From the NCBI RefSeq assembly GCF_026155325.1, contig NZ_JAPFPW010000018.1, forward strand, positions 1-62,601: 62,601 nucleotides of DNA. The letters are read 5' to 3'. The notes under the pieces were generated by a model. The model had not been told where the DNA came from and ran no database searches. It was given only the letters and a program-made list of their open reading frames with translations. A program made the position numbers and the translations under genes. Of the stretch, positions 1 through 20,283 are shown one piece after another. Numbering within the stretch: position 1 is the stretch's first letter; each line of letters begins with the position of its first letter. The stretch is from Desulfobotulus pelophilus (GTDB lineage: Bacteria > Desulfobacterota > Desulfobacteria > Desulfobacterales > ASO4-4).

Positions 1-3000
1 CACCATGGATGTTGCCCCAGGAGCTTAAGCCGAAAGCGCCGCTCTCAAGGTGGGTTTCAAAAAGCTCCCAGGCACCGGAGCTGCTTTCGTAACGATAGGC
101 CGAGGGCCTGCCGCTGCTGTCCCTTTTATGGATGAGAATGCGGTATCTGCCGCGGATGTAGGTACCCGTGCCGGACTTTTCATAGGCGTAGCCATTGAAG
201 AAAAGACGGGTGGGATCTTTGGCATCTTCGCCCTCACTTCCTTCAAAAACAGACCAAATGCGGCTGTGGATATTAAAATCCCAATTGCCGTAGCTGTAGT
301 TGCGCACAAGACCCAGACGGCCGCCCTGGGCCTGTACCCAGAGGTCCGTCTCACCATGGACGAACTCCCCCGTAAGGGGAAGAACAGAGGAACCCACGGG
401 AACGCAGCGGTACTTACCGCATTCGTCGGATGCCCAATGCACGCAGTCACCACATTCAGATTCTGCGGCAGCCCGACTGCCGCTGCCCGCATCCTGGCAG
501 GAGCCGGAAACCGATAGAGAGGCTCCCGTTGAAGAACCGCTCTCCCCTTCGCGCCCCCCTCCGGGTAAGGGATCACAACTGCCCTCATCCGTGGCGATCT
601 CCCTTGCCGCCGGTGTCCAGATACCGGAAGAACCCCAGCCACCACCTCCCATACCACCGCCCCAGCTGATGCCGCCGCCTCCCGGACTTCCCGGAGCAGG
701 CTGATGCGCCGATGTCCGCCAGGGGCGGGTAAAACAATGGGGTATTCTGCCGGAATAGGGGCAGCCATTGGCCGCCACTCCCTGGTAGGAGGTATAAACA
801 CAGGCCCGGTAGGCCCCTCCGCTGCCACCACCGCTTTCCATCTCATCCGCAGGATCCAGGCTACGAAGCGTCACAAGACGGTAGGGAATACGGATACTTT
901 CTTTGGCTCCCAGCATTGCAGGAACGCCCGACAAAAGCTGATACTGAATGTGGCTATCGTTTTCCGGGAGCTGCACTGCAAGATTATCCGCTGCGATCAG
1001 GCCGTGGTTGGTGCACACAAATTCACCGGTGAACACATCTCCGGCCTTCAGATCCGGAAGGGATATGGTTCCCGGCTCACACACCACTACAGGGGCTGGC
1101 ACATTGGTTTCATAAATCATGGTAAGAACAATGTCATAGCTGTCCTGCAGGGTGGTTTCAACTACGCGCCACTCCACCGTGACAAAATTGTACTCCAGAA
1201 ACAAAGCCTCGCTCACCGTTATGCCCGGCTTAATCCACACCCGGCCGGTAGTTTCCTGATGCCCCGCCGCACGGACCCGGTACTTGTAGATCCCTGCGGG
1301 AAGATCACGCAGCAGCGCTTCACCATGACCATCGCTTTTTGCATTAAAATGAAAAGACAGATTTTTCTCATGCTGCAAAACGATACTGGCATCCTTCAGA
1401 CCCTGTATGGCCTCATTGTCCGGCCCCAGGGAACCGGTATAGATATTCTGCACCTTGAACAGAACATGCCCCCGGCCATTCTGAGTTACGGACACATAAA
1501 ACGGAATGGATACTGCCGGATGATTGTCTGCTTCTGCCGTGAGAAAAAAGGTGTACAGACCTTCACGGGTTCTCAGGGGAGGAACCAGCGTAACCGGTAC
1601 ATCAAGGCTTTCCCCCGTACGGAGGAGGGAAGAAAGCCCTGTATGGTTAAGGATCACCCAGTCCGGAGCCTCACCACCGCCCTCTCCCTTCAGGGTAAAG
1701 CGCAGACCCTCCGCATCCGCAAGGCCCCTATTCGTAAAGCGAATGGTCTCAACGGGGTGATCACCCGGGACAAGCCCTGTTTCTCTGAAAGAAGGAAAAA
1801 CAAGCCGTGGCATGGCTTCCGTAAAGGAGATGTCCAGATGAACATGAGCCCAGGGCTTATGCCCCGTCTCTTCACTTACAAGACGGAGTATCAAAGAACC
1901 ATGCTCAGCCACCTGATTACTCCCGCTGATCCGAAGATGGACCCAAGCCTTTCTCCCTCCGTCCAGCACTTCAATGGGCGAACCTCCATCCCATGACAGG
2001 CCCTCCATAAAAGCATTGGCTGGCTGATCCGACTCATCATAAACAAACCGCAGATTGCTTACACCGGTTCCCTCCGCAACCTCAACCTGAATGGGGATAC
2101 TTTCCTCGTAGTTTTTCGGAAGAGTCAGGCGAATACGTGAAGGATACAGCCCCACCCGTGCGATGGTAAAGGCCGCCTGAACCGGCCGCTCCATAAGATC
2201 CGGGTGCAGAGCGGCCACCTCAAAGGTTCCCGATTCCTTTACCGTGGGCCGGAAGGTGTAGGAAAATGTGCCGTCAGAACCGCTGACCAGAGCGATCTTT
2301 CGCTCAAAACCCCTTTGCATGATAACGAGGTTCAGAGGGGTGTGGGGAAGATTCCGCCCGCTCGTCCGCTCATAGACCCTTCCTTCTATCTGCACGTCCT
2401 GATCATGGGCAAGCCTGGGAAAAACCGAAACCACCTCAGCTGCATAGGATGTCTCCACAAGGGTCACACCCACGGCGCTGCCAAAGCCCCGAAGTTCATG
2501 GGGATGATCCGTGGCAAAACCATGAAAAACACGATCTATTTCAAGCCTGAGAACAACATCATCTGGCGCGGACAGAGGGATGGGAAGCAGCAGCGGATTG
2601 GAGGTAAAGCGTTCTCCCGGAGGAATACGCACAAGACTCTGCCCAGTGGCAAGGGTATAAACGGACTCCCCCGTTGCCTGCAGAAAATTCACCACAGAAA
2701 GGGTGTTGTCATCACTGTCCGTCAGTCGAAACCGGATATCCTGCGAAGGATTTTTCCCAAAACTGCGGGCTGTCAGAATTTCCACATCTTCGCTGCCCGT
2801 ATTTTCAAGAAAGAAACGCACCTTCCCCGCCCCACCACGGATCATGTTTTCCGAACGAATACCTGCGGCCAGCATGCCTTCTCCCACAGCCATAGTCTGA
2901 GCCCGCCAAATCTGCGCCCGGATACCGGGTTCAGGATTCTGCTGAACCCTCAGCGACAGGGTTTCCCTGTCTTTTAATCCGGCATATCCCGGCACCACGA

Positions 3001-6000
3001 CAGGAACCCTGAGCGTTTCACCCGGAGACAGGTTAAAGGGACTGCTGCCATGATCCCGATTCCCTATTCCTGCCGCAAGTTCAAGTCCCGCAAGAGAAGA
3101 GGTACCCTTGTTTGTCACATCGCAAAAAAGGCGGTTCATGATACCACGACGCAGCAGGCTGTTATCAGAAAGCGCCACTTCAACAAGGGGGAGATGCACA
3201 CTCCGACCGGGGCTTTCTTCGCCGTTACCATCCACAGCCACAATATGATAAACTCGTTCATCACCGGTGTATCCCCTGTCTTCCATCTGATAAAAAATAA
3301 CAGGCTCCTCCCCTACCGGCATCAACTGCCCGGGCGGTCCCATGGACACCACAAAACCGGCAAAGCTGCCACCGGGATGGGTCCAGGAAAAAACGGGAAG
3401 CTCATCTTCGTTACGGCTTACAAGAAGTCTGTCCGGAGGAAGAAGATGGAAGTTGAGATAAACGGAACCGGAAGGAAAGGATTCATTTCCCGCACTGTCA
3501 ACAGCCGTTACGGCATAGGTATGATGGGTTGGCGAAGGGCTTGTATCCAGTGCCTGCTTCTCACCAAAAACCGCCTCTACGGGAAACAGCCCATCCGTGG
3601 AATCAATGACGGATCCATGGGAACGATACAGCCTGTGGGACACCACATGTGCGCCATCCCCTTTCCAACGGGCCTCTATACCCGATGGTAGCAGGTTGAG
3701 ACTCAGATCATAGGGGGCGGGGGGAAGGGAAACCAGTGCCAGAATCTCTGCGGGTTCCGAAAAAGCGCTTTCCGCCTCCTCACCATTTTCCCGTCTCAGG
3801 CTTGTCAGGACATAGGTATACCTCCCATCTTCCGCGACCCTGTCCTCAAAACCTTCTACATCGCCTTCCACCTCCCCGATCAGTGCAAAATCCCCGCGGC
3901 CGCCATCCCTCCTGTAAATCCTGCAACCGGAGCTTTCTTCCACCCTGCGCCAGCTCAGAGCCACACCGCCCCCCGGCAAAGCCCTTGCCTCCAATTCAGA
4001 AGGAGGCGCAAGGGGTGGGAGCTCACCGGCATACACCTGAAATCGATTGAGTGCGGCAATCTGCGAGCCTTCATTATCGAGAAGACAGCGGGCCAGAAAA
4101 ACAAAAGACAACATTTCTGGTTCAACCACACCCGCATCAAGGGGAAGATCCAGGTGTCCTTTCCAGGTTTCAGCATCACCGTGAACCGTACTTATCCTCC
4201 GGACATCAGCAACCTCTGTTTGCTTCCTGCCCTTTCCGAAAAGGAAAAAAGAAAATTCCGGGCTGCTGCCATCAGCCACCGCCTTATCCAGACCTGCGGT
4301 GAATTCCACGCGGAGAGGGCTGGCATTATTGTGAACGGGAGCAGCCGGGTCAAGGACAAGACGACGGACAACAGGACCATCCGTATCAATCTGCAGGCTC
4401 ATGCCAAGATCAATCTCCGTACCCCGGTTACCCACCAGATCCCTTGCGGAAAATACGGCCAGTGCCCGGCCTGACGGGGTGGATGCCTCCATATCAAAAT
4501 ACCCCTCATACTCAAGAGCACCGGTCTTTCTCAGCTCCATGGGAAAGGGCTGCCCTCCGTGCGGAGTGATCCCGAAAAAAGGTGCCGCCATCAAAGGCTC
4601 GCTCACCTGTATCCGGGCCCGTACGCGCCCCCGGCCAAAAGCACCGTTTACGGGATGAACCCTGCCATCGGATTCATAATATATACTGGCCCGCGGACCC
4701 GTACCATCCGATACAACGGAGACTTCTTCAGAAAGGGCACTTTCATTACCCGCTCTGTCTGTAACCGTAATACGGTAATACCAGAGCCCATCCTCCGGGG
4801 GCATGTCCCTGTAATGCAGACCCGCTATGGGCCTTGCGTTCACTCTGCCTGCCCCGCCCGCATCGGTAAAGGAAGCGGCACTGCGGTAAAGGGTATAACC
4901 GGCCATGTCTCTCTCATCACCCGCTGACCATGCAAGACGAACCCCTCCACCTTCCAGTGCCTCTGCGGAAAGCTTTGCGGGAGTAGACGGTACACTGACA
5001 TCAACTTCAATGGAAACAGGCTCACTCAATGGCCCCATACCCGACCGGTTAACGGCAGCAGCCTGAATGCTGTGACTGCCGGAAGCCAGAAGCAGGGTTA
5101 CCTCAAAATGCCCTTTCCGGTCCGGCACAAGGAGGCCTCCCCAGGCCTCTCCATTCAGGTAAAGCTGAATCCTGTTCTTCTCTTCCGTTTCACCCCTAAC
5201 CTGAATCTCCGTTCGGTTGACAATCCAGCCATTACGGGGTTCGCTAATCCGGGGAGCCGTAGGCAAATTCATCTGAATCCGGATATTTCTAGAAAAAGTA
5301 CTGATATTATTCAGGGAATCATGGGCAACGATACGGAAGGTATAAGAGCGGTCTTCCAGCTCATGGATATTCACGCGCCAGCTATAGGGACTTCCGTAAT
5401 CCGTATGGTGCAGCACATCATCCAGAAAAAACTCAATACGGCTGACACCCGAAGGATCTTCCGCCCGAAGACGGATCAGACCGGAATCTGCAATAACAAA
5501 TCCCTCTTCAAGGGGTCTTCCATCCATCATCACATCCATAATCAACGGCCCTTCTTCATCGGACTGCGGAGTTGCCCCAAGACTTTCCACATGGGGATTC
5601 TGCCCTCCCGAACGATTCACCGCTGCTACGGCCAGATAATAGGTCTCATGACTGGTAAGCCCTGCCACACCAGCCTGTGTACCCGTTACCACAAGAACCG
5701 GCTTCATCCCCTCCGTTGACGTAAAAGGGGCGGATGACTGGTACACCGCATAATGACGGAGGCTGCTTACGGGTTCCACCGGATCCCAGCGGAGCAGCAG
5801 AGTTTCTCCCTCAGGCCGTATACTCAGCCCCGAAGGATTGGAAAGCCAGGTATGAGCACCTGTGCTGACACCAAGACTTTCCATGCCCCGGCTATTCACA
5901 CTCCGGATCTGAAAGGTATAAGCCGATGCCTCCGCAAGCCCCACCTTTTCATAGGAGGTGGCATCCGCACCAAGGATTTCTGGTGTCAGACTGTTGTTAA

Positions 6001-9000
6001 AATAGATTCTGTACCCCTCAAGGTCGCTGTGCTGATTTTCCGGAGACTGCCAGGTAAAATACAGCCGGTCCGCAAAAGAATGAACGGAGAGATTGACCAC
6101 ATCCAGAGGAGCCTGCCTGTTCACGGGAATCGCCGACACGGGTGTCACTTCTTTCAGCATATTTCCCGCTTCATCCACAGCCACCACGGCAAACCAGTAG
6201 AGTCTTCCCCTGGCAAGATTCTGTACCACATAGGAAAAGATACCCGCATTCACCACGCCACAGGGTTCTCGATCTTCCACACTGGAAAAGGGAGTCGTTT
6301 CACAAAAAATCAGATACCGCTCAATATCTCCATGCAACGCTTCATTGTAACCGATCCAGTCCAGCAGGACCGTAGTACCGTTCCCGTCTCCACTGGCCGT
6401 CAGATTCTGAACGGAAGGAGGGGGTATATCATCAAAAACAATACGCACCCTGGCTTCAGGACTGACATTACCGGCCCTGTCCTTTGCGGTGAAAACAAAC
6501 TGGTTCAAACCCTGCTGCAACCGTACCCTGTGCTCCCATTGCAGAGCGGCTGTGTGCCCGGTGATAGGCTCTCCATTCATGGAAAGGGCAGAAAAAGCCT
6601 CCTTCTGGCCCCGGAGTATCTGGGTTATGGTGTGGGTTGGAGAAAAAACAGGTTCCACCACTGGCTGACCGGGTGCCACCCTATCCACCGTAAAGATGCG
6701 GGTAAAGCCAGACGCATTGGCCACTTTATCCACAAGAAGTCCCTCTACAGTATAGACATCATCGCTGAAATCCTGTTCCGGGACAAAGACCGCCGTATCT
6801 TCTGTCAGGGTCCATGTTCCCGGTACGGAGTTCTGCCTTTCGTTTTTTACCGTAAACCAGCTGTTTTCCGCGTCAAAGCCGACACCATGTTCCCTCCAGG
6901 AAAGAGAAATCCTTTCCGGAGAATAATTCAGAAAAGCTACGGCAGGTGCAAACGCTGTCAGGGCAGGGGGCATTACATCCACAAAAACATCCACCCAAAC
7001 GGGATCACTTGCCGCACCCGCCCTGCTGATCGTCTGGATCTCTAGATGATTTATTCCTTCATAAAGATTATCGGCGTGATATCCTGTCCAAAAATAAACA
7101 CTCCAAGGGCCACTTCCCGTAGCTGTCTTCGCAATAATTCTGTTTCCTCTGCGGATTCTTACCCAGGTATCGTCGTCCCGCTCACCTCTGAGGGTAATGT
7201 TCCGAATATTGGAATAATTAACCTCCGGACGGGGCAGGACAGGACCGGAAAATACACTGTCTCCTGTTATGACAGGCGAAGAAGGTCGATCCGGTTTGAT
7301 TGTAAACTCAAAAAAATAATCCTTATGGTTGCCTGCAAGGTCCGTAGCCCTGAGATCCATGCGGTAAAGCCCCGCATCCATGGGAAGGGTGGAGGGGATA
7401 AAGGAAAAGCAGTCTCCGCTCACCCGCCGGGTTCCGGGAATCAAACGCCCCTCCCTGCTCAGCACAAGGCTTTGCAGGGTAACCTCACTGTTCACACGCC
7501 CCCCATGGAGGTCCCTGATATGGGCATCCACTTGACTCACCTGATGGATCAGCGCCCCATGGGCAGGCGTACTGCTGTACATCTCCGGCGGCGTGGTATC
7601 GGCAATGCTACCAAGACTCACCTCATAACTATTGTTTCCCTCATCATCTTCAACAATATTATTGTATATATCCGCCACCACCCTGAGCACTGCAGGTCCC
7701 ACCCGGGCGGACCAGATGATGCCAAGCTGAATGGACTCCCCCGCTGCCAGCCCCTGAACATGGTGTCTCCCCACATGGCTGCCATTAACATAAAATCCCA
7801 CTTCAAAACGGGAAACAGCAGGTCCTGCGCCCTGATTTGTAATGGTAGCCGTCACCGCAACCTGCTGACCCGCTTCAATGCCCGCAGGAGGGTCCCATGA
7901 AAGATGGCTCACCACCAGATCCGCCTGCGCACCGGCTGTCGTAAAACGCCAGACAGGTCCATGAGTTTCCAAACCATGGCTGTTCCGGCTCACCACACGC
8001 CAGAAATAGGTGGTCTCCGGTTCGACTTCAAGGGAGAAGAAAGACCGGTCAAGACCTTCGGCCAGAACAGTAAGGCTGTTTTCATCTCTACCCCATAAAA
8101 GCAGGTAATGAACCTTCTCCTTTGGGTCAGGGTCCCCTCCATCCCACTCAAGCAAGATCTCTCTGCCGGGAAAAAGCAATTCTGCAGCTTCATCCAACGG
8201 CCGTGGATTCCGAGGCACAAAGGGCCTATCACTGATCATAGAATCGGGGGCACAGACACCGGGCTCCTCAAGCCATGGGTCTACCACCACATTCCCTGAT
8301 ACCCAATCCCCTGTATAACCAGGGCCATGGGGATCACCCCACCAGTTATGGGCAGCGATCACACCTTGACCACCCGTATGTTCCAGTCCACACTGCCTGT
8401 TTTGGATAAAATGATTATGCCGAATCACCGGATCAATAGTCATTTGCGCCGTAATACCAACCTCATTTTTTCTGATCGTGTTGCATTCAAGGGAAATATT
8501 GCTACTCTCTTGCCCATACAGTCGGATGCCGGAACCGGAACTATTCTGTATGGTACTGAAACGTATGGCAGGGCTGGAATAAAGAGCATATATATTTTGC
8601 CCTCCACCGTAGCCCCCATATTCCACAACAGCATGCTCCAGCACAGAATTCTCCCCCGCTGTCCGGTCAAAGAGAATCCCGCGCCAGAAACCAGAAAAGG
8701 GAAAAGGGGTATTGGCCGTAAAAAGGATAGGAGCATCGGTGGTTCCCCGGGCAATCAGTGCTCCGGGATCAGAATAATCATAGCGACTACCCACGCCAAG
8801 GGAAGAACCACTGTTGAAACGAAGCTCGGTGCCGGGCTCCAGAGTCAGGGTAGTGACACCCTCACGCCCATCCCTGCCCCGTACATACAGACCGGCAATA
8901 AGCGCATAGGGAATGGAAGATTGCCAGGTACTGCTGCGGCTCAGGCTGGAATCCCGCACCACAATGGCACTGTCTGCGTCCAGCCCCAGAAACTCCGCCC

Positions 9001-10972: not shown

Positions 10973-11033
10973 GGCTTGGCAGCTCCCTTTTTCTGGCAGA
11001 GCCGAGGCCCTGCATCCCTTGGACAATAAGCTG

Positions 11034-11996
11034 TTAGTATTGGTGGACAGTCGGAGAGCATCCGTAATCTCCAACGGAACGCTTTTCTACGGGCCCCATA
11101 CCAGCCTGCTGCTTTCTGCGGTATTCCTCATAGCCTTTCCACCCTCCTGCCAGAAAATATACCTGCCTTATGCCTTCGGCCGAGACCCTTCTCTGCAGCA
11201 CAGCATTGTCCCGCCCATCCCCTGTTATGAGCACAAGGGGTCGCAGGAAAAAATTATCCCTCAACCCCAGCACATCCCGCAGGGCTTGCCCGCCATCGGA
11301 AGAAATGGAAGAAAGATTCAGCAATCCATGGAAAAAAGATGACGGCACCCTTTCCCCTTCCTCTTCTTTGACATAGATCATCAGAGGCTGCTCCCTCCCG
11401 AGTGATTCCGCAAAGAGATCCGGCGAAACCACAGCCAGACCATGACATGCAAAGGGATCTCCTGCCAAACGCCCGCCCCTTTCCTGCCAGGCAAGAAGTC
11501 CTCCTGCCAGAACCGATGCGCTGTAACCCGCCTTGTTCAGCTCTTCGCCCATAGAGACCGCAGCACCGAGGGAAAAGCCATTACCCACAAGAACTATGGA
11601 TTTTTTTTTCAAAAAAGATCTTGTCCGTATTCCATACAGCGGTACATTGATGGAATCTGGAATGTGACAGGACTCAAAGACATCTGCCGGGCGAGTATCC
11701 ATGAGCACAATTTGCCCTTCCCTATGCTGCGCCATTACCGTATCCACATCACTGAGCAGGGCCATCGGCACAGGGCTTGCCGGAAATTTCTTTGCCACAA
11801 GAACCTCTCCCCAACTGTTCCCGCAGAAAAAAAACAGAATCAGCATTCCGCCACAGCAGGTAAAAAACTGAAAAAAAGAGATCAAACCGCAAAGGCCCTC
11901 TTCCTGTAACGTTTTTTTCCCATGGCTCGGGAAGAAAAAGGAATAGGGCAAATAGCTGTCTTTCCATCCCTTTATCCGGTATCGTTCCGTCCTCAT
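11034..11996 (-). CDS. Exported tandem rhodanese-fold protein without catalytic cysteines
   Basis: 320 residues. Its ATG overlaps the stop of the preceding 1,677-residue gene as ATGA, so the two are probably translationally coupled. A hydrophobic stretch at ~38-62 looks like an uncleaved anchor or a late signal peptide; a start at Met51 is a possible alternative. Two rhodanese-like halves follow. The first has the LMDTR-x-DVFESCHIPDSINVPL signature (~98-120) and the turn LVGNGFS (~136-142). The second ends in a QVYFLAGGWKGYEEY-type element. In rhodaneses the active-site loop carries a catalytic Cys, but here the first loop has Gly (about 138) and the second reads LITGDGRDN. Sulfurtransferase activity is therefore unlikely and a binding or assembly role is more plausible (inference). 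It lies between two giant surface-protein genes. Confidence 0.75.
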   Translation of the reverse strand: MRTERYRIKGWKDSYLPYSFFFPSHGKKTLQEEGLCGLISFFQFFTCCGGMLILFFFCGNSWGEVLVAKKFPASPVPMALLSDVDTVMAQHREGQIVLMDTRPADVFESCHIPDSINVPLYGIRTRSFLKKKSIVLVGNGFSLGAAVSMGEELNKAGYSASVLAGGLLAWQERGGRLAGDPFACHGLAVVSPDLFAESLGREQPLMIYVKEEEGERVPSSFFHGLLNLSSISSDGGQALRDVLGLRDNFFLRPLVLITGDGRDNAVLQRRVSAEGIRQVYFLAGGWKGYEEYRRKQQAGMGPVEKRSVGDYGCSPTVHQY

Positions 11997-14900
11997 CGCA
12001 GCAGTTCCCCAATGAAACAGGCACCGGACTCATCCGGATCCAGATTCAGGGTAACCAGAACATCCCCATTTACCTTTACGAGATCCGTAGAGTACAGCGC
12101 ACCGCCATATTCCAGCTGCAGCCTGTACTTTCCTTCTGGCAGATAAAAAACCGCCTGCCCATCCTCTGTGGTTTCTTCCTCCTGCCCCAGCCAGACATCC
12201 CCGCTACCGTACAGGCGAACGGAAAGCCCGCCCATCGGAGCTCCTGACCCACTCAGAACGAAAAGGATAAGCCTGCCTCCACCACCGTTGATCAGAGCAC
12301 TCCCCCTCCCCTCATCGGGAACGTCCACAACAGCGCTCCAGTACGACTCCCCTGCCATCTCCGCCCGAAAAACAAACGCTGCCCCCGCCGGAAGCAGAAA
12401 ACTCGCCCTGCCATCATCATCCGTCAGACCGTGTCGTTCCCTGTAAGCCCTGTTGTCTCCGTGGAGATAAACGGGAATATTTTTTGCCGGAACCCGGCTT
12501 CCCACCCCTTCCATGGTAACCACATCCACATCTACGGAATTATGGGCAATACCTATTCTGGATTCCACCATACCGGGTATCTCCACCACATCGCTCCAGA
12601 ATGAATGGCCCAGATAATCCACACGTATACGATAACGACCACCAGCAAGATCAAACCCTGCCCTGCCGGTACCATCCGTCAGCCCGAACTGCCCCATGTC
12701 CGCGCCATGCAGACTGAAAAGATGACAGGCAACTCCTGTCAGAGGTTCACCGCTGTCACTTTCCACCTTCAGGCTGAAATTGCCCGAACCCGTGGACAAT
12801 CCGGTGGTATGGGAGTGACTTGCCACAAGATTTTTTTCCCCGCTCCAGATCTCTTCTCCCAGATGATCCACCATGAAGCGATAGGATCCTTCCGGAATCC
12901 TGAATCCGCAGTACCCGTCCGCATCCGTCAATCCATCCACGCCCAGACTTTCCCCATCTTCCCTGCAGACAACAACCCTGGCTCCGGCAAGAGCTTTTCC
13001 TGCGCTGGTAACACCAACCCGCACATCCGCCATGGGTACAGGGATTTCCCCGTCTTCCCATAAGAAAAGACCACTTCCATATACCCGGCCCAGGTATTCC
13101 ACCCTTGCCTCATATTCTTTTTCCGGCAAATCAAATACAACATGTCCGGCAGCATCACTTATCTGGTAAATCCCCACGGCTTCCCCCCCGTCCGTAAAAA
13201 GATTCACCTCCACCCCGGAAAGGGGACTCTCTTCCTCCAGGAAACGTCCTTTCAGAGAAACCATCACCTCCCGATGGGGAATAAAAACGCTTCGGCGGGT
13301 TTTCGTTCCATGACTCACGGACTCATGGAAACGATGCCCCTTCCACAGTATTTCCGCCCTGTACTCTCCGGCCGGCAGGTGAAAGGACACAAATCCATCA
13401 CCATCTGTGCAACCGTCCAAACCGGGGAACCCCTCTTCCGAATCCATGCGGACCAAAGCGCCGACTATGGGTTCATGGGGTGACTTTCCAAGGTAAAGAA
13501 CCACACTGCCATCACTGGCAGGCAGGGCAACCACCTGCATGGTCTCATCCCCTTCTCCAACCCGTACAGCATCTGTCCATATAAAGTGTCCGTCCAGCTC
13601 CGCCCGGAAGAGAAACTTACCTCCGACAGGAAGCAGGAAAACAGCGTTACCCTCTCCGTCCGTAAGCACAGACTCATCCCGGCAAAGCCCGTCTTCCGTA
13701 CAGATAGAAACGGGTATTCCGGCCAGACCTCCTCCGGATCCGAGAACCGTAACCGCAACCCTTTTCTCCGAAAGAATCATTTTGAACGAGGCGGTGCCCG
13801 GGGAAAAAAACTCTTCCGACCAGAAACCATTTCCCATATAGGTCACTCGGAAACGATATATCCCTTCTGTAAGGCATTCTTCAGAAAAATGAGCCTGACC
13901 AAAAGCATCGGTAACAACGGCTTCTACCGGAACCATGGATCCCTGCGCAAACACTTCCGCCCCAAGACCGGTAAGCAGACGGCCCTGATCCGTCACTACG
14001 GACAACACCAGAGCCTCCGGTCCTTCGGTGTAGCGTTCCGTGAAAACCGCGCTCCGGTTCCCTGCCCTGTCAATGGCCATGAAACGCAGGGTGGTATCAG
14101 CTGTGATGAGAAGGGGATCCCCGTACAAGGCTGCTGCTTCTGAAGGCTCACTGCCATCGAGTGTGTAGTAGATAAATGCGTCCTCATCCACCTCAAGGAC
14201 CACGGAGAGTGTTTCCCTGAAACGGCAACCGGCGGGAACAGCAATGGGTTTGGGCGGGGTTTGATCAATGATGACAGGAAAGGGGCAGAATACCCTTGAA
14301 AAAGTTCCCGAACCACGGATTATGGCATAAAGAAAAAAGGTTCCTTCAAGACCGGCCGTGTCCCATAGAAAGACACCTGATTCGCCATCCGTATCCTTTT
14401 CTATACGGCCCCGGGCAGGAACACCTTCATCGGGATAGCCCCTGTCCGTATAATAAAAGACAAGCTCATCATCCTGCAGACCGTCAAAAGTCCAGCCAAC
14501 AGAAATCTCCGGGCCTGGAGTATGCACAGGGCTTTCCGGTGACAGAAAGGAAAACCCGGAGGCCCCCTCCGCAATCGTCCCATGAACCTTAGCAAAAAAA
14601 GCACCCGTTTCCGACCAGCTGCCCGCTGGCCCACTGCCATCCACGACCTGCACCCGCCAGTAATACCAGCGGCTGGATCTAAGGGGGGCATACCCGAACC
14701 AGAAAAGATCTTCTGTCAGGGTATGGGCTACCAGACGGGTCAGCTCCGGATCTTCATAAAGTTCAAAACGATATCGCACCGACCCATGGGACTGAATCTC
14801 AGGATCCCTTACGGGATGTACGGCCAGAACCGGAACGCCCCCCCTGACCCAGGCTCCTTTCCCAGGATTTCTCAGCTCAGGCGCAGGAAGGACTATTGGT

Positions 14901-17026
14901 ACGGCTGTCCCAGAATCCTCATCCTGCCCCCCCGACCACCCCTTGCCTTCCGTATCCACGCCAAAATACCCATAAGTCCATAGGCTGCTGCCGGTGTGAT
15001 CGGAAGCCCTGACGCGCCAGTAATAAAAAGATTCGTCCTGAAGCGGAAAATCCACCACAGCACCGACCCTTTCTTCTCCATGGCAAGCCAGGGACTGCGA
15101 CCATACTTTCTGCCGGAAAGTACGGTCATCAAACACTTCAAAGGTATAAATAACGGGATCCTTTTCCGGGTCTGGGCTGCCTGCAATCACAAGTTCCGGA
15201 TTCAGTGAGGAAACGGCCACACCCTTGCCCGGACTGATTATCACAGGAGCCCCGGGTACATTCTGCGGAGTGGTGGGATCAAAACCATTCAGATATTCAT
15301 CAAGGTCTGAAATACCATCGCCGTCATAGTCACCGGTGCCGTCACGGTCCAGACTGCCGAAATACTCCAGCTCCCAGGCATCCGGCATACCATCACCATC
15401 CCTGTCCGTCTCTGAACCGATACGGATCTTTACCCTGCGTGCTGCTTCCAGCCCACTCTCACTAGCCATAAACCGTACGGAATAATCACCGGCCTGCCCG
15501 AAAAACGGCGTCCAGTCAAAAACACCACTACCATCTTCCCTGTCCACAAAAACGGCTCCCACCGGAAGGCGATCTGTGGAGAGAGCAGGAAAACCACCAG
15601 GTGATGAGACGGTCTGTACCAGAAAGGAAAGAGGCTGGCCTTCGCTGCCCTCCTTATCCGGTATGAAGGCGATGGCAGGAGGAACCGGTACGGTCTCCGG
15701 ATCCTGATAAACCAGGGAGTAAACACCTGTGGTATTAAAATCAAAAATATTCACACTGTACTGCCATGGCCCCCTGCCCTCTCTGGTTTTGGAAAGCCAG
15801 ATATTCTGAGGTCGTATCCGCTTGCCATCGGATCGTATGGCCCCCTTGATGGCCATACGGCCCTGCTCGGGATCCGGTATCTGTGCATAGACAAAGCCAT
15901 CGGCTGACGGCATTGTCAGCCGGACAGATCCTGCACCGGAGCCGGTAAGGGCCGCGTAGGCAGAAAGATCGGAAACAGCAGAATCAACCGTATCGGATTC
16001 ATACACCCGCAGCACATCATCATCTCTGGCCAGAAAATCCTCTATGGAGTCCCGACCGGGAGCATCCACAAGCACACTGCGCACAAGGGTACGGGTATTA
16101 ACGGCTTCGATGAGAGAAGTCATCTGTCCGCCCAAGGCATCCGCATGGGAAAACTCCGCGTCAAAGCCCACCATGCGACCAGTGAGGGAAGACGTCATTA
16201 TCCAGCGGGCAACTCCCGAACCTCCCGGAGCAATATCACCCAAATCCGCAAGAAGGGTTTCTGCCGCCGGCTCCCCATTTACCCGCACCCCTTCAATATG
16301 AAAACCGATAAACAAACCGAGATCATTATCAACAATTCGGGGCTGTGCGGACTGCACCCTCAGAGAACGGGCATACCCATGTCCCCCGTTCCGGATCCGC
16401 AGGCCAAGTTCAAAGGGCAAAGGTTCCTCCACAGTGCTGGTCCATGGGTCATTACCGAAAACATCCACCGGCAGAAAATAATCCAGAACAAGAGCTGGCA
16501 TGGGTTTGACGTAAATACAATCCGGTGCGACCTCTATGGTTTCACTCTTGCCTGCAGCTGTGTAGGAAAGGGTTGCTCCCACAAAATAAAGGGTGCCGCT
16601 TTCCCGCCCACCGGAAGCCCCGGGGGCAGGGATAATAAGCCAGTGAATATCTGCCGATGTTTCCGGGGCCACCTTGCCCCTGCCACTGACATCACTGATA
16701 TGGTTCATGGTCTCCGTACGAATAAAAAAAAGGGCTCCCGTATCATCAGGATCGGAAGAAGCCCGAACCGGCCTGCCGCTTTCATCGCTGAAATGAACCT
16801 CAACGGTAACATTTTCAATGGAAGCATGGGCAAGGCCATTGTTGATACGCATATGGGCATCAAAGGCCTGCCGCTCCAGGGTCAGTTCCTGCCGGATCTC
16901 AATTTTCACCGTTGCGCAGAGGGAACGGGCACAGATACTCTGCGGATCAGTCAAAAACAGACCCCCTGCAACAAAAAGCCAGAACAAAACGGGCCGGAAC
17001 CCGGAAGACAGAATGTGCCTGATCAT
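11993..17026 (-). CDS. 1,677-residue exported multidomain surface protein with eight carboxypeptidase-regulatory-like repeats
   Basis: A signal peptide occupies about residues 1-33. The N-terminal ~400 residues are beta-rich and I do not recognise them. Then come an Ig/He_PIG-like domain (~455-535), a thrombospondin-type-3-like acidic repeat (~538-580, DRDGDGMPD and DYDGDGISD, likely Ca2+ binding), several FN3-like modules marked by YYWRV, and a chitobiase-C-like module with YYTLDGSEPS (~930-990). From ~1010 to the end there are eight ~80-residue modules of the carboxypeptidase-regulatory/SpaA type. Each shows a loop DG, then LTD..G.A.F.LP.G.YR, then a Y-L/M-G-x-x-FWS element. No sorting signal or membrane anchor is visible at the C terminus. 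The gene starts 49 bases after the transglutaminase-like gene and overlaps the rhodanese-like gene by 4 bases. A long secreted or surface stalk is inferred; substrate and partner are unknown. Confidence 0.85.
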   Translation of the reverse strand: MIRHILSSGFRPVLFWLFVAGGLFLTDPQSICARSLCATVKIEIRQELTLERQAFDAHMRINNGLAHASIENVTVEVHFSDESGRPVRASSDPDDTGALFFIRTETMNHISDVSGRGKVAPETSADIHWLIIPAPGASGGRESGTLYFVGATLSYTAAGKSETIEVAPDCIYVKPMPALVLDYFLPVDVFGNDPWTSTVEEPLPFELGLRIRNGGHGYARSLRVQSAQPRIVDNDLGLFIGFHIEGVRVNGEPAAETLLADLGDIAPGGSGVARWIMTSSLTGRMVGFDAEFSHADALGGQMTSLIEAVNTRTLVRSVLVDAPGRDSIEDFLARDDDVLRVYESDTVDSAVSDLSAYAALTGSGAGSVRLTMPSADGFVYAQIPDPEQGRMAIKGAIRSDGKRIRPQNIWLSKTREGRGPWQYSVNIFDFNTTGVYSLVYQDPETVPVPPAIAFIPDKEGSEGQPLSFLVQTVSSPGGFPALSTDRLPVGAVFVDREDGSGVFDWTPFFGQAGDYSVRFMASESGLEAARRVKIRIGSETDRDGDGMPDAWELEYFGSLDRDGTGDYDGDGISDLDEYLNGFDPTTPQNVPGAPVIISPGKGVAVSSLNPELVIAGSPDPEKDPVIYTFEVFDDRTFRQKVWSQSLACHGEERVGAVVDFPLQDESFYYWRVRASDHTGSSLWTYGYFGVDTEGKGWSGGQDEDSGTAVPIVLPAPELRNPGKGAWVRGGVPVLAVHPVRDPEIQSHGSVRYRFELYEDPELTRLVAHTLTEDLFWFGYAPLRSSRWYYWRVQVVDGSGPAGSWSETGAFFAKVHGTIAEGASGFSFLSPESPVHTPGPEISVGWTFDGLQDDELVFYYTDRGYPDEGVPARGRIEKDTDGESGVFLWDTAGLEGTFFLYAIIRGSGTFSRVFCPFPVIIDQTPPKPIAVPAGCRFRETLSVVLEVDEDAFIYYTLDGSEPSEAAALYGDPLLITADTTLRFMAIDRAGNRSAVFTERYTEGPEALVLSVVTDQGRLLTGLGAEVFAQGSMVPVEAVVTDAFGQAHFSEECLTEGIYRFRVTYMGNGFWSEEFFSPGTASFKMILSEKRVAVTVLGSGGGLAGIPVSICTEDGLCRDESVLTDGEGNAVFLLPVGGKFLFRAELDGHFIWTDAVRVGEGDETMQVVALPASDGSVVLYLGKSPHEPIVGALVRMDSEEGFPGLDGCTDGDGFVSFHLPAGEYRAEILWKGHRFHESVSHGTKTRRSVFIPHREVMVSLKGRFLEEESPLSGVEVNLFTDGGEAVGIYQISDAAGHVVFDLPEKEYEARVEYLGRVYGSGLFLWEDGEIPVPMADVRVGVTSAGKALAGARVVVCREDGESLGVDGLTDADGYCGFRIPEGSYRFMVDHLGEEIWSGEKNLVASHSHTTGLSTGSGNFSLKVESDSGEPLTGVACHLFSLHGADMGQFGLTDGTGRAGFDLAGGRYRIRVDYLGHSFWSDVVEIPGMVESRIGIAHNSVDVDVVTMEGVGSRVPAKNIPVYLHGDNRAYRERHGLTDDDGRASFLLPAGAAFVFRAEMAGESYWSAVVDVPDEGRGSALINGGGGRLILFVLSGSGAPMGGLSVRLYGSGDVWLGQEEETTEDGQAVFYLPEGKYRLQLEYGGALYSTDLVKVNGDVLVTLNLDPDESGACFIGELLR

Positions 17027-17075
17027 TGCAAGCCCCTTTTCCAGCCATCAGCCAAATGGCCCCTATCCCTTATAC

Positions 17076-18038
17076 CTACCGGTTCAGCCCAACCCGGAGA
17101 CCCGTCCCTTCAAGCTGCAGTACAAGCGAGCGCTCCTGTATCTCCGATGGACGGGAAACATGAAAAGCAATATAATTGTCTTCCCGCTCCATAAAACGCT
17201 TCTGCTGGGGATCCGCCACTCGCCACTGGCCTTCATAAAAAAATTCAGCCCAGTTGTGATAATTTCCGAGATCCAGTGCCTGACTGTCACTCACCATGAA
17301 ACCACCCATCATCCGGGAAGGGATACCGATGGCGCGGCAAAGGGCGACAAACAGAGAAGCAAACTCCGTACAGTCTCCCCTTCTCTGTTCAAGGGCAAAA
17401 AGAGCCCCTCCGGTTTTTCCTGCATATCCCGTATAAACAATATGCTCACTCACCCATGAAAAAAAATTTTCTATGGTCTGAAGAGAGGAAACGGACTCCA
17501 GCGAGGCCGCCAGGGCTCTGATCTCTTCATGGTCAGACTCCATGAACGGCTCCGGAGCGAGGTAGGAATCCAGATCCGTACCCATAAACTCCAGAGGCTC
17601 TTCCCGAAGTTCCACAGCCGTTCGTATACGAAAAATCCTTGTTGCAAACGGAGGGATCTCCTCCCATCGGAAAACCATCACATTCTCCGCCGGTGGATCG
17701 CTACGCATCTCATAAGGATGATCGGCACGAAGCCCCACACGGCTTTGAAATGACGTTGCACTCAAAGGGGAAAGAACATGAAGTTCTCCATGGGAAATGA
17801 CTTCATTCGATATATTTCTCAGGGAAAGGACATAGGCCAGATGAATGGTTCGTGCCCGCTGCTCGGATACCCCTGTGGACACATCCTCCTTCTCATGACC
17901 CGGCCTATGGATCCGTTCACCTGCGATGAGAAACAGGAGAATCAACGATCCAAGGGCGGCACAAAGCAGACTTTTTTTTGTGAGAAAAGACATGGCAAAC
18001 CATTCAAAAGAAGCATACTGCATGCGGGATGAATTCAC
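17076..18038 (-). CDS. Membrane-anchored transglutaminase-like cysteine peptidase family protein
   Basis: 320 residues from a GTG start; ATG codons at residues 6 and 16 are alternatives and none has a clear ribosome site. A single hydrophobic segment (~23-40) should anchor it in the inner membrane with the rest in the periplasm. The C-terminal half holds the transglutaminase-core triad: Cys223 (RRGDCTEFAS), His261 (NYHNWAEFF) and Asp276 (RVADPQQ), in the usual order and spacing. Family members act as peptidases, amidases or crosslinkers. As first gene of a cluster with two giant exported proteins, processing or crosslinking of those proteins is an attractive but unproven role. A terminator-like hairpin sits 53 bases upstream of the start. 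Confidence 0.85.
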   Translation of the reverse strand: MNSSRMQYASFEWFAMSFLTKKSLLCAALGSLILLFLIAGERIHRPGHEKEDVSTGVSEQRARTIHLAYVLSLRNISNEVISHGELHVLSPLSATSFQSRVGLRADHPYEMRSDPPAENVMVFRWEEIPPFATRIFRIRTAVELREEPLEFMGTDLDSYLAPEPFMESDHEEIRALAASLESVSSLQTIENFFSWVSEHIVYTGYAGKTGGALFALEQRRGDCTEFASLFVALCRAIGIPSRMMGGFMVSDSQALDLGNYHNWAEFFYEGQWRVADPQQKRFMEREDNYIAFHVSRPSEIQERSLVLQLEGTGLRVGLNR

Positions 18039-18090: not shown

Positions 18091-18118
18091 ATAAAAAAGC
18101 CACCCGTGACGGTGGCCC
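18091..18118 (-). terminator. Rho-independent terminator or attenuator-like hairpin
   Basis: Stem GCCACC (18099-18104) pairs with GGTGGC (18111-18116). Read on the minus strand it is followed by six T. It would end transcripts from the efflux permease, or act as an attenuator in the leader of the transglutaminase-like gene, whose start lies 53 bases further on. Confidence 0.65.
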
Positions 18119-18321: not shown

Positions 18322-19449
18322 CTATCCGTGACAATGCCCTTCGCATGAACAGGAACTCCTGCCTCCCCGCCACTGTTGCCACTGACGCGCTCCCAGATTC
18401 CAGACAAAAAGAATCAGGAGTATCAACGCCGCTGCCAAACCGAACAGGCCTGAGTCTTCTTCAGCCGCCCCATGCCAGCCCTGCACACCTCCCGTCAGAG
18501 CATAAAACCAGTCAGCGGCCATACCCATGACAAAAGCACAGACCACAATCCCTCCCACATGCACCATGGCCACAGACCGGCCGAGAATACGAGAAATCAC
18601 AGTAAAGGAGGCCGCGTTGATGGCAGGACCTGCCAGAAGAAAAACCAGAGCCGCTCCGGGATTCAGCCCTTTCATTACCAGAGCTGCGGCAATGGGCGTC
18701 GATGCCGTGGCGCATACATAAAGAGGCACGGAAACGGCCAGCATGGCGAGCATAGCCAGCAGAGGATTACCCAGCCAGGTACTGACCATGTCCGGTGTCA
18801 CAAAAACGGAAATGGCACCGGCAATAAGAAGACCAAAGAAAAACCAGATGGCAATATCCCCAAAAAGATCACCAAAGGCAAAAACCATTCCCATCTTCAG
18901 GCGCGATGCCACAGACAAAGTGACCGCCTCCGGCTTGCAGCAGGCGCTCCGGCAAAGCTCCCCTTGCGGAATCCCTTCCATCTGCCCTGCCACTGATACG
19001 GCTTCTTTGTGCAGGCTTTCTACCCTGCCTTCTTTCCAGCGATCCACTAACTGTATGATACCACCGGTGAACAGGGCCGTGATAAAAGCGGAAAAAGGCC
19101 GGATTACGGCCATAAAAGGATCCAGCAGTGCCCAGGTCACCGCAATGGAGTCTGCACCGGTTTCGGGTGTAGCTATCAAAAACGAAGAGGTTTCTCCCCT
19201 TCCTGCCCCCTGCTCCCGAAGCCCTGCCGCCGTAGGCAATACCCCGCAGCTGCAAAGGGGCAGGGGTATACCTAAGAGACAGGCTTTCACAACGCCCGAA
19301 AATCTCCTGCTACCAAGATGCCGGGCCACAAGAGTGTCCGGCAGAAAAGCCTTCAGCAGACCAGCCAGCATAAATCCCAGTAATATATAAGGAGCGGATG
19401 CCACCAGAACATACCAGCTAGCCTTAATGATTTCCTCCACCCAGACCAT
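18322..19449 (-). CDS. SO_0444-family Cu/Zn efflux permease
   Basis: 375 residues, polytopic. I chose ATG at 19449 because AAAGGAG lies 6 bases upstream; the longer frame to 19518 has no comparable site and would run into the operator. The conserved PLPLCSCGVLPTA motif and the second-half CATASTPIAAALV segment are typical of this permease family, known for export of divalent metals. A Cys pair in the central cytoplasmic loop (CRSACCKPE) and a C-terminal SSCSCEGHCHG tail look like metal-binding sites. The gene follows a CadC/SmtB-type repressor gene, and its promoter overlaps a perfect operator, so metal-induced expression is likely. Which metal is moved cannot be read from the sequence; Zn, Cd or Cu are the candidates. 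Confidence 0.85.
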   Translation of the reverse strand: MVWVEEIIKASWYVLVASAPYILLGFMLAGLLKAFLPDTLVARHLGSRRFSGVVKACLLGIPLPLCSCGVLPTAAGLREQGAGRGETSSFLIATPETGADSIAVTWALLDPFMAVIRPFSAFITALFTGGIIQLVDRWKEGRVESLHKEAVSVAGQMEGIPQGELCRSACCKPEAVTLSVASRLKMGMVFAFGDLFGDIAIWFFFGLLIAGAISVFVTPDMVSTWLGNPLLAMLAMLAVSVPLYVCATASTPIAAALVMKGLNPGAALVFLLAGPAINAASFTVISRILGRSVAMVHVGGIVVCAFVMGMAADWFYALTGGVQGWHGAAEEDSGLFGLAAALILLILFVWNLGARQWQQWRGGRSSCSCEGHCHG

Positions 19450-19495
19450 ATTCTCTCCTTTATGATTGTGAAACAGACCAAACCAAGCGCACAAA

Positions 19496-19525
19496 TGAAC
19501 ATATGAAAAAACGTTCATATGTTCA
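19496..19525 (-). promoter_or_regulatory. ArsR/SmtB-type operator overlapping the permease promoter
   Basis: TGAACATATGAA (19496-19507) and TTCATATGTTCA (19514-19525) form a perfect 12-6-12 inverted repeat, the size and half-site (ATATGAA) expected for ArsR/SmtB repressors. On the minus strand TTGAAC (19526-19521) and TATGTT (19503-19498) are spaced 17 bases and make a plausible -35/-10 pair. Bound repressor would therefore cover the promoter. Confidence 0.8.
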
Positions 19526-19572
19526 AGAAAAAAAACTTCCCTCCCTTTTTTTTACGAACCAGGCCCGGGTCG

Positions 19573-19932
19573 TTACTCGGCTACATGATCTTCTGCCTGC
19601 TGCAACAGGGTGACAATGTGAGCATCATCCAGACTGTAGACAACGTTTTTACCCTCTTTCCGGAATTTAACGATGCGGGCAGAACGAAGTACCCGGAGCT
19701 GGTGAGAAACGGCAGAAGAACTCATGGAAAGAAGCTCGGCAATATCACAGACACAAAGATCCGAAAAACTTAATGATTTTAAAATACGCACCCGACCTGG
19801 ATCTCCCATGGCCTTAAAAAGTTCCGCCATACGAAAAAGGGTACCATCACCGGGCATCTGTGCGGCAACCTCTGCCACAACTTCCCCATGTACACAGATT
19901 TCTCCGCAGAACTCTTCGGTTTTATCTTCCAT
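19573..19932 (-). CDS. CadC/SmtB-type ArsR-family metal-sensing repressor
   Basis: 119 residues. Start chosen at ATG 19932, preceded by AGGAGG; the longer frame to 19965 lacks such a site. A winged helix occupies most of the protein, with recognition helix SMSSSAVSHQLRVLR. The LCVCDI motif at the start of helix 3 is the classic CadC/ArsR metal-box pair of cysteines, and the N-terminal CGEIC supplies the two further cysteines that CadC-type sensors use for Cd/Pb/Zn. Such proteins leave DNA when metal binds. The gene is upstream of the permease on the same strand, with the operator between the two, so the permease is the obvious target. Confidence 0.88.
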   Translation of the reverse strand: MEDKTEEFCGEICVHGEVVAEVAAQMPGDGTLFRMAELFKAMGDPGRVRILKSLSFSDLCVCDIAELLSMSSSAVSHQLRVLRSARIVKFRKEGKNVVYSLDDAHIVTLLQQAEDHVAE

Positions 19933-20283
19933 ATATATCCTCCTGCCTGCCCATGCAGCTGCCAATCCCTGCTGTATTCATAGCATGAGATAAGATGAAT
20001 GCAAAAGCCCAACAGGTCTCAACCCATATGGACAGCGGATAAACAGCAGGTCCGCAAACAGCAGAATCATAATAACCACGCAAACCGCAACCGTGCACCA
20101 TCACGGCGGATAAAGGGATCTTCCACCGCATCCAAGCATAAAAACGATTTACTTTCCAAAAGTTTTACCCTTTGGGCTGGTCAATCGACAATGTCTCCTT
20201 TATAGTCATGCGTGTCAGGTTACGGCCTGCTTACTCCAACCCGGGCCCAATGGTCCCAACGAACCAACAAGGAAGTTCTCCCC
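19933..20283. promoter_or_regulatory. Divergent intergenic region with candidate repressor promoter
   Basis: For the minus-strand repressor gene, TTGCAT (20004-19999) and TATGAA (19982-19977) are spaced 16 bases and form a reasonable sigma-70-type promoter. I see no clear promoter, riboswitch or repeat for the plus-strand HDOD gene in the remaining ~280 bases. Confidence 0.35.

What the first reader, a model, noticed from the sequence alone, without database searches (positions are those of the whole stretch)
1..18038. Four-gene cluster of giant exported proteins with a transglutaminase and a dead rhodanese
Two very large exported proteins (1,677 and more than 3,650 residues) are co-directional and tightly packed with a membrane-anchored transglutaminase-like enzyme (intact Cys-His-Asp) and an exported rhodanese-fold protein. 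One junction is an ATGA overlap and the other gaps are 49 and 61 bases. I know of no named system with this set. A working model is that the transglutaminase processes or crosslinks the giants on the surface and the rhodanese-fold protein acts as an assembly factor.
Basis: partly seen in the sequence, partly recalled or inferred. Interest (0 to 1): 0.8.

Follow-up and report, generated by a model that had tools for sequence, protein, structure and literature searches.

The report
Rhs toxin locus with export helpers
The four genes look like part of a widespread and apparently undescribed kind of bacterial weapon locus: a giant exported Rhs-type toxin carrier, a giant Ig-like partner, a transglutaminase-like enzyme and a rhodanese-like protein that has lost its usual active site.

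Summary
In detail: four co-directional genes (TG, giant 1, rhodanese, giant 2) at 2-18038, minus strand, with the stated gaps. The window starts at a contig end, so giant 2 is truncated.

The set is conserved. Of 389 genomes of the class, 46 carry the giant-1 N-terminal module, 35 the rhodanese and 32 both; 26 of the 32 have them within 20 kb. In 80 loci (partly the same genomes) order varies, but every TG (46) and rhodanese (37) found is on the cluster's strand.

Longer homologues of giant 2 carry Rhs shells with hypervariable tails. At most 8 of 35 tails match a catalytic toxin family and 6 a pretoxin HINT domain. Many are followed by a small gene, one a barstar beside a barnase-like tail. 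I read the cluster as a Sec-exported Rhs polymorphic-toxin locus rather than a surface cross-linking system.

Fourteen beta/gammaproteobacterial loci have a T2SS-like operon beside the giants and no TG or rhodanese; one Elusimicrobia contig runs T2SS-rhodanese-TG-giant 1. T2SS export is likely but untested.

The TG triad is invariant (49 of 49). The rhodanese never has its catalytic Cys (0 of 48) but usually has a C-terminal CxxC. Their roles are inference.

The parts
17076..18038 (-). TG: transglutaminase-like protein with an N-terminal hydrophobic segment, 320 aa, triad Cys223/His261/Asp276
   Evidence: PF01841 3.2e-20; triad invariant in 49 of 49 aligned proteins, window included
11993..17026 (-). 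giant 1 (G1), 1677 aa: N-terminal hydrophobic segment, conserved N-terminal module, then Ig-like/Cna_B-like repeats
15107..16921 (-). G1N: conserved ~605-aa module of giant 1; tandem Ig-like domains plus TSP3-like end; invariant Cys37 near the expected mature N terminus
   Evidence: 44-row alignment, 55% mean column identity; Cys in 44 of 44; AF2 pLDDT 88.4; PDB matches are mostly Ig-type domain arrays
11034..11996 (-). ROD: tandem rhodanese-fold protein without the catalytic Cys; C-terminal Cys313 aligns with the first Cys of the family CxxC
   Evidence: fold predicted for the G040 relative
2..10972 (-). giant 2, at least 3657 aa, cut by the contig end: N-terminal hydrophobic segment, beta-helix region, fn3/CARDB/Ig-like stalk, start of an Rhs part
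   Evidence: contig end; sister-species copy runs on into RHS repeats (L031, RHS_repeat 1.2e-15)
725..6877 (-). G2: stalk of giant 2 (residues about 1400-3450) shared with other loci; a gene separate from RHS in many gamma/beta loci
   Evidence: coverage profile: 18 to 33 of 57 loci per 100-residue bin over this part
2..577 (-). start of the Rhs part of giant 2 (residues 3500-3691); the shell and any toxin tail are missing from the assembly

Best explanation
The cluster is a Sec-exported Rhs polymorphic-toxin locus. Giant 2 is the toxin carrier: a long beta-helix/Ig-like stalk (G2) joined to an Rhs shell whose hypervariable C-terminal tail would be the toxin. Here the tail is lost at the contig end. 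Giant 1 is its Ig-like partner. SHOWN by comparison: a conserved gene set with permuted order, Rhs shells on longer homologues, toxin-type tails and immunity-type genes in a part of them, G2 and RHS fused in some lineages and split in others, and TG and ROD as same-strand accessory genes. INFERRED: giants 1 and 2 form one extracellular complex; they cross the inner membrane by Sec; a type II secretion system carries the folded complex across the outer membrane; TG, with an intact triad and a likely membrane anchor, modifies or trims the giants in the periplasm; the catalytically dead tandem rhodanese, with its C-terminal CxxC (one Cys here), acts as a binding or thiol-handling assembly factor. 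My odds are about 0.8 for 'Rhs polymorphic-toxin locus', 0.5 for T2SS export, and 0.3 for the particular roles of TG and ROD.
For: Co-occurrence: G1N in 46, ROD in 35, both in 32 of 389 genomes (Fisher 1.8e-32); 26 of 32 within 20 kb. Without the 8 genomes that brought the families in: 24 both, 3 ROD only, 14 G1N only, 340 neither, p = 3.7e-25. In 80 loci, TG is in 46 (46 of 46 same strand, median gap 24.5 bp) and ROD in 37 (37 of 37 same strand). In 30 class-set G1N loci with 1.5-kb flanks, TG is in 23. Rhs tails: 35 scanned, PT-HINT in 6, HNH in 2, and GH-E, Ribonuclease, PLA2, NucA/B and (weakly, 7e-4) GIY-YIG in one each. A small ORF begins between 75 bp before and 50 bp after the Rhs stop in 21 of 28 genes (80-locus set) and 4 of 8 (class set). 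Of 24 such ORFs, one is Barstar, beside the barnase-like tail of L076; others match SUKH and ankyrin. Toxin-type tails beside ROD: L168 PT-HINT (TG also present), L186 PLA2; L181 resembles L186. The sister-species giant 2 enters RHS repeats. T2SS-like genes (two or more of E, F, D) in 16 of 80 loci, incl. L091 and L079 with TG and ROD; 16 loci hold a secretin-like hit against 0.8 expected.
Against: The window itself contains no toxin tail or immunity gene. Most tails have no catalytic toxin match (at most 8 of 35; none for L167, L171, L175, L178, L181, L185), and most of the 24 small ORFs match no known immunity family. No chance level was computed for the small ORFs. 4 of 8 class-set giants have none, and the Cys-rich tails of L036 and L074 have no small ORF after them. 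T2SS genes were not identified in this window among the ORFs I scanned, and no secretin lies in it; the genus has several secretins elsewhere anyway. The T2SS-linked loci are mostly one related group, so few independent events; TG and ROD are absent from that group. The two locus sets overlap in genomes. No experiment bears on TG or ROD.
Confidence: 0.7

Rival explanations
1. A surface adhesin/matrix system: giants 1 and 2 are cell-surface fibres, TG cross-links them by isopeptide bonds, and the dead rhodanese is an assembly chaperone. Rhs is only a structural end piece.
For: Ig-like, fn3, CARDB, PKD and Cna_B-type repeats typical of surface proteins; intact TG triad; many Rhs tails without a recognised toxin domain and some without a neighbouring small gene.
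Against: Toxin- and immunity-type domains in a part of the relatives, including ROD- or TG/ROD-linked loci. TG is absent where G1N and its N-terminal Gln residues are still conserved.
Confidence: 0.2
2. TG and rhodanese are linked passengers (operon hitch-hikers), not part of the mechanism; only the giants are a unit.
For: TG and ROD are missing from the T2SS-linked group and from other loci (32 of 80 without either, some on short contigs).
Against: 46 of 46 TG and 37 of 37 ROD on the same strand, 43 and 33 of them within 300 bp; ROD genomes nearly always have G1N (32 of 35); shared over Desulfobacterota, Gammaproteobacteria and Elusimicrobia.
Confidence: 0.07
3. A tripartite Tc-like (ABC) toxin relative acting on eukaryotes.
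For: Several giant exported parts with an Rhs shell; a PLA2-type tail in L186 and a related one in L181.
Against: No Tc-type domain among the Pfam matches of the parts scanned; Barstar and SUKH immunity-type genes point to bacterial targets.
Confidence: 0.03

Closest known systems
Rhs/YD-repeat polymorphic toxins (Zhang et al. 2012, PMC3482391; passages seen)
   Same: Signal peptide, Rhs shell, HINT, variable nuclease/RNase tails, SUKH/barstar/ankyrin-type immunity genes.
   Different: That paper's table gives no signature neighbour genes for the T2SS/Sec-dependent class; here there is a conserved set (G1N, TG, ROD or T2SS genes) and a ~2000-residue G2 stalk.
N-terminal inactive transglutaminase domains of Rhs toxins (same paper)
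   Same: A transglutaminase fold linked to Rhs toxins.
   Different: There it is fused and has lost catalytic residues; here it is a separate protein with the triad kept in 49 of 49.
Xanthomonas perforans Bcn-A (PMC7259588; abstract and passages seen)
   Same: Rhs bacteriocin with accessory ORFs and an immunity gene; activity lost in an xpsD (T2SS secretin) mutant background.
   Different: Its helper ORFs are small (124, 100, 290 aa); the passages seen mention no rhodanese or Ig-like giant, and 'transglutaminase' does not occur in the text. No sequence comparison was made here.
Tandem-domain rhodaneses / sulfurtransferases
   Same: Fold (Foldseek hits 1yt8, 6mxv, 1urh).
   Different: Catalytic loop Cys absent in 48 of 48; instead a C-terminal CxxC in 34 of 48.
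Protein-glutamine gamma-glutamyltransferase 6g49 (that this is the periplasmic domain of TgpA is recalled)
   Same: Transglutaminase-like domain.
   Different: Weak similarity (1.4e-4); no toxin linkage known to me.

Membership tests
Rhs polymorphic toxin system | Rhs/YD repeats and RHS core | tested here: met
   In relatives: RHS_repeat and RHS in the five giant-2 C termini scanned and in the G040 giant 2, plus RHS_repeat in the sister-species copy. In the window itself only the start of this part is present.
Rhs polymorphic toxin system | Hypervariable C-terminal toxin tail | tested here: met
   In relatives: tails vary (13% mean column identity over 35) and some match PT-HINT, HNH, GH-E, RNase, PLA2, though most have no catalytic match. 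Not testable in the window, whose contig ends first.
Rhs polymorphic toxin system | Cognate immunity gene directly downstream | tested here: inconclusive
   Small ORF at the Rhs stop in 21 of 28 and 4 of 8 relatives, no chance control; immunity-type domains in a few of 24. Not visible in the window.
Rhs polymorphic toxin system | Toxicity and immunity shown in cells | not testable with these tools
   Needs experiment.
T2SS-exported proteins | Export lost without the T2SS secretin | not testable with these tools
   Only gene linkage: 16 of 80 loci, L091 and L079.
Active transglutaminase | Cys-His-Asp triad | tested here: met
   49 of 49.
Active transglutaminase | Transamidation rather than proteolysis | not testable with these tools
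   Needs assay; the nearest solved relative by sequence is named a putative cysteine protease (3isr).
Rhodanese (sulfurtransferase) | Rhodanese fold | tested here: met
   PF00581 2.5e-13; AF2 model of the G040 copy and Foldseek.
Rhodanese (sulfurtransferase) | Catalytic Cys in the active-site loop | tested here: not met
   0 of 48 in the column aligned with the Cys of 3nhv.
Tc (ABC) toxin complex | TcA/TcB-type domains | tested here: inconclusive
   None among the Pfam matches of the parts scanned; no dedicated search was made.

The most novel reading that the evidence does not exclude
A dedicated toxin-delivery machine that has not been described: an Rhs toxin carrier and an Ig-like giant are assembled in the periplasm by a covalent cross-linker (TG) and a repurposed, catalytically dead rhodanese that handles thiols through a C-terminal CxxC arm and the one invariant Cys of giant 1. 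The folded complex then leaves through its own or a recruited type II secretion system, as the one-strand T2SS-ROD-TG-G1 array in L091 suggests.
Probability: 0.2. Interest if true: 0.85.

Novelty: new variant of a known kind. Interest (0 to 1): 0.62.

Why it matters
How Sec-exported Rhs toxins of Gram-negative bacteria leave the cell and are assembled is, to my knowledge, largely open; the 2012 survey lists no signature neighbour genes for them. This set gives a marker module (G1N) found in at least 152 places of a genome collection, three kinds of helper gene to delete, and named cultured strains among its carriers for the test. A rhodanese family without the catalytic Cys in any of 48 members, yet with a C-terminal CxxC in most, is a surprise in itself.

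Tried and rejected
The rest of the window's giant 2 was sought in its own genome with the G040 Rhs region and with the sister-species end. The hits were a separate Rhs locus on G000:C3 and one chance-level match on C7 (E 0.56), so the missing end was not found in the assembly. DUF6531 (PF20148) gave no hit in the own genome.

A TG-specific Gln substrate at the giant-1 N terminus (Q11/Q18 of the module) was considered. Both are invariant in 44 of 44 rows, but the rows include TG-less loci, so this is not evidence for cross-linking.

Fusion of RHS with G1N in L085 was considered as proof of contact and set aside: the frame holds a masked stretch between the two parts.

The idea that a particular secretin of the genus goes with the cluster was looked at: G000 and G001 share a secretin that G002, which has no cluster, seems to lack. 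Three genomes prove nothing. Fold search of G1N gave mostly generic Ig arrays. A leader/attenuator upstream of TG was checked: the window's hairpin is not conserved in the sister species.

Literature. All-term searches found no paper, and 43 found one: PMC13274458 (abstract and passages), which lists rhodanese, transglutaminase and RHS genes among unrelated mutated genes. Looser searches matched 17, 36 and 65 papers, of which I saw 15, 15 and 12 in the listing; none of the listed titles or abstract starts describes this set. PMC10318531 (passages) was irrelevant. The library holds only open-licence PMC papers.

Counting choices. Of 152 relatives only the best 80 were returned and used. These overlap in genomes with the 389-genome class set (same contigs, e.g. 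L039 = G001:C37, L064 = G311:C76), so the sets are not independent. L085 (masked bases), the piece L169 that duplicates L170, and L036 were left out of the 35 tails; L178 and L181 have no tail by my motif and were scanned. Six of the 80 loci show none of TG, ROD, RHS, G2 or two or more T2SS genes, all on contigs of 12.7 kb or less. Presence lists for the Fisher tests were transcribed by hand at E < 1e-40. L036 has no downstream ORF entry in the script; its giant 2 is followed by G1 after 25 bp. Four RODs counted without a C-terminal Cys include L184, whose CxxC lies just outside the script's limit, and L095, cut by its contig.
Full report
1. Observation. Pfam finds Transglut_core in the 320-aa TG, Rhodanese in the 320-aa ROD, Ig/Cna_B-type domains in giant 1, and beta-helix, CARDB, fn3 and Ig-type domains in giant 2. 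The window is the whole contig C18 of a 3.66-Mb, 86-contig genome and starts at the contig end, so giant 2 is cut by the assembly. The same-genus genome G001 has the cluster on a contig of 25,476 bases, the length of the Desulfobotulus alkaliphilus ASO4-4 contig found (71% identity over G1N). The window is therefore probably from that genus (inference).

2. Conservation. A search with ROD over 58 related genomes and phmmer on fetched stretches showed TG-G1-ROD-giant 2 in the same order in G001, G027 and G054. G040 has ROD-TG-giant 2-G1, and G017 has ROD-TG near a contig end. G055 and G039 are partial. The first ~605 residues of giant 1 (G1N) are the best conserved part (71% mean column identity over 5 rows against 43% for ROD and 48% for TG; 55% over 44 rows). 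Over 389 genomes of the class, G1N (E < 1e-40) is in 46, ROD in 35, both in 32; Fisher p = 1.8e-32, and 26 of the 32 have them on one contig within 20 kb. Leaving out the 8 genomes through which the families were first found still gives p = 3.7e-25. Genomes are related, so these p-values overstate independence. In 30 class-set G1N loci with 1.5-kb flanks, 23 have a TG. The same-genus genome G002 has neither G1N nor ROD at these thresholds. No homologue of the window's upstream gene P0005 lies in the G001 stretch, so the cluster may be an accessory island.

3. Wider family. A scan of genome contigs with the G1N alignment found 152 relatives, 80 returned: Desulfobacterota, Thiotrichaceae, Methylococcaceae, Xanthomonadales-type genera, Betaproteobacteria, Elusimicrobia, Lentisphaerae and others. 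In these 80, TG occurs in 46, ROD in 37, both in 35, and RHS or G2 in 45. All 46 TG and 37 ROD are on the strand of the cluster, with median gaps of 24.5 and 0 bp. In many gamma/beta loci giant 2 is split into a G2 gene and an RHS gene; in the two Lentisphaerae loci (L103, L114) and in the Desulfobacterota copies with their ends in hand it is one gene. Fusion in some lineages and splitting in others suggests that G2 and RHS work together.

4. Giant 2 is probably an Rhs toxin carrier. The D. alkaliphilus copy runs on into RHS repeats (RHS_repeat 1.2e-15). Copies with their ends in hand (L167, L168, L175, L178, L186) have RHS repeats and the RHS core. Tails after the core are hypervariable. Pfam on 35 tails gives PT-HINT in 6, HNH in 2, and GH-E, Ribonuclease, PLA2, NucA/B and (weakly) GIY-YIG in one each; catalytic toxin families thus match at most 8 of 35. 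A small ORF sits at the Rhs stop (-75 to +50 bp) in 21 of 28 genes of the 80-locus set and 4 of 8 of the class set; L178, outside that count, has one after 38 bp. No chance level was computed. Of 24 such ORFs, one is Barstar, beside the one barnase-like tail (L076). Others match SUKH, ankyrin, DUF4265 and DUF7668; most match nothing informative. Toxin-type tails beside ROD are PT-HINT (L168; TG present in that genome's cluster, L146), PLA2 (L186; no TG in that stretch) and a relative of the latter at Desulfatitalea alkaliphila (L181, TG and ROD type; 31% identity, 1e-15, part of it in the Rhs core). Against: the tails of L167, L171, L175, L178, L181 and L185 have no Pfam toxin match of their own, and L036 and L074 have Cys-rich tails with no downstream small ORF.

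5. Export. In 14 beta/gammaproteobacterial loci (Luteimonas, Pseudoxanthomonas, Rhodanobacter, Dyella, Polaromonas, Rubrivivax, Rhizobacter and others) G1N is followed on the same strand by T2SS-like genes (T2F and T2E in all 14, a secretin in 13; L113 has a second RHS gene in between), without TG or ROD. Pfam confirms T2SSF and T2SSE and, in three of three scanned, a secretin with a Cohesin domain. L091 (Elusimicrobia) has T2SSE, a T2SSF-like frame, an N_methyl pilin, T2SSK, a PilN/PilM-like protein and another ORF, then ROD, TG and G1N, all on one strand. L079 has T2SSC-D-E-F divergent from TG-G1N-ROD. Sixteen of the 80 loci (1.18 Mb) hold a secretin-like hit against 0.8 expected from the secretin density of six genomes. 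The two counts used different search methods, and relatedness is not corrected. X. perforans Bcn-A, an Rhs bacteriocin, loses activity in an xpsD mutant background (PMC7259588, passages), which makes T2SS export of an Rhs toxin credible. The window's genome has four secretins, none in the window.

6. TG and ROD. TG keeps Cys, His and Asp in 49 of 49 aligned proteins. 42 of 49 have a hydrophobic N-terminal segment. Nearest solved structures by sequence are 3isr and 6g49. ROD folds as two rhodanese domains (AF2 on the G040 copy, pLDDT 85.6; Foldseek to tandem rhodaneses). The loop position of the catalytic Cys is never Cys in 48. Instead a C-terminal CxxC is present in 34 of 48 and a single C-terminal Cys in 10, including the window. 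Another Cys, on the next helix, is in 38 of 48 but is Gly in the window. G1N has one invariant Cys (44 of 44), also in ROD-less loci. A thiol link between ROD and giant 1 is therefore possible but not indicated specifically.

7. Mechanism. Shown by comparison: a conserved Rhs locus, toxin-type in a part of its members, with an Ig-like giant partner and dedicated accessory genes. Inferred: that the window's copy is a toxin, periplasmic maturation by TG and ROD, complex formation, T2SS export. AF2 and Foldseek say only that G1N looks like an array of Ig-like domains.

8. Novelty. The toxin kind is known (PMC3482391, passages). That paper reports inactive TG domains fused to Rhs toxins and lists no signature neighbours for the T2SS/Sec class. 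The literature searches named under Tried and rejected found no description of this set, within an open-licence library and capped listings. I rate it a new variant of a known kind.

Noticed in passing
window 18097-18118 (-): Terminator-like hairpin with a T-run between the efflux gene and TG; either the upstream gene's terminator or a leader/attenuator of the long operon. Not conserved in D. alkaliphilus.
   Followed up: partly
G000:C3:231415-238883: A second Rhs locus in the same genome: a 2850-codon open frame followed by shorter Rhs frames (496, 361), which looks like orphan tips.
   Followed up: no
L169-L172 (G145:C1:995500-1073600): Two copies of the G1 and giant-2 pair close together in one genome, one giant 2 of roughly 7,000 residues by arithmetic over two loci, plus a third G1-ROD-TG set at 2.63 Mb.
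   Followed up: partly
L058:15420-18286: In Desulfoluna spongiiphila a Rce1-like protein and an Lgt-peptidase C25 fusion lie between giant 1 and the rhodanese.
   Followed up: no
window 27133-28683: ABC-3 type permease fused to an iron-dependent-repressor metal-binding domain (Fe_dep_repr_C).
   Followed up: no
window 18322-19965: SO_0444-type Cu/Zn efflux permease with a Cys/His-rich C terminus, next to an ArsR-family regulator.
   Followed up: no
contig ends G000:C18, G001:C37, G027:C1, G017:C98, G039:C731: Contigs break at or inside the cluster in several drafts, so such loci may be under-reported in short-read genomes.
   Followed up: no
L079:7687-8577: LuxR-type regulator with an autoinducer-binding domain beside the T2SS and TG-G1-ROD cluster; a hint of density control.
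   Followed up: no
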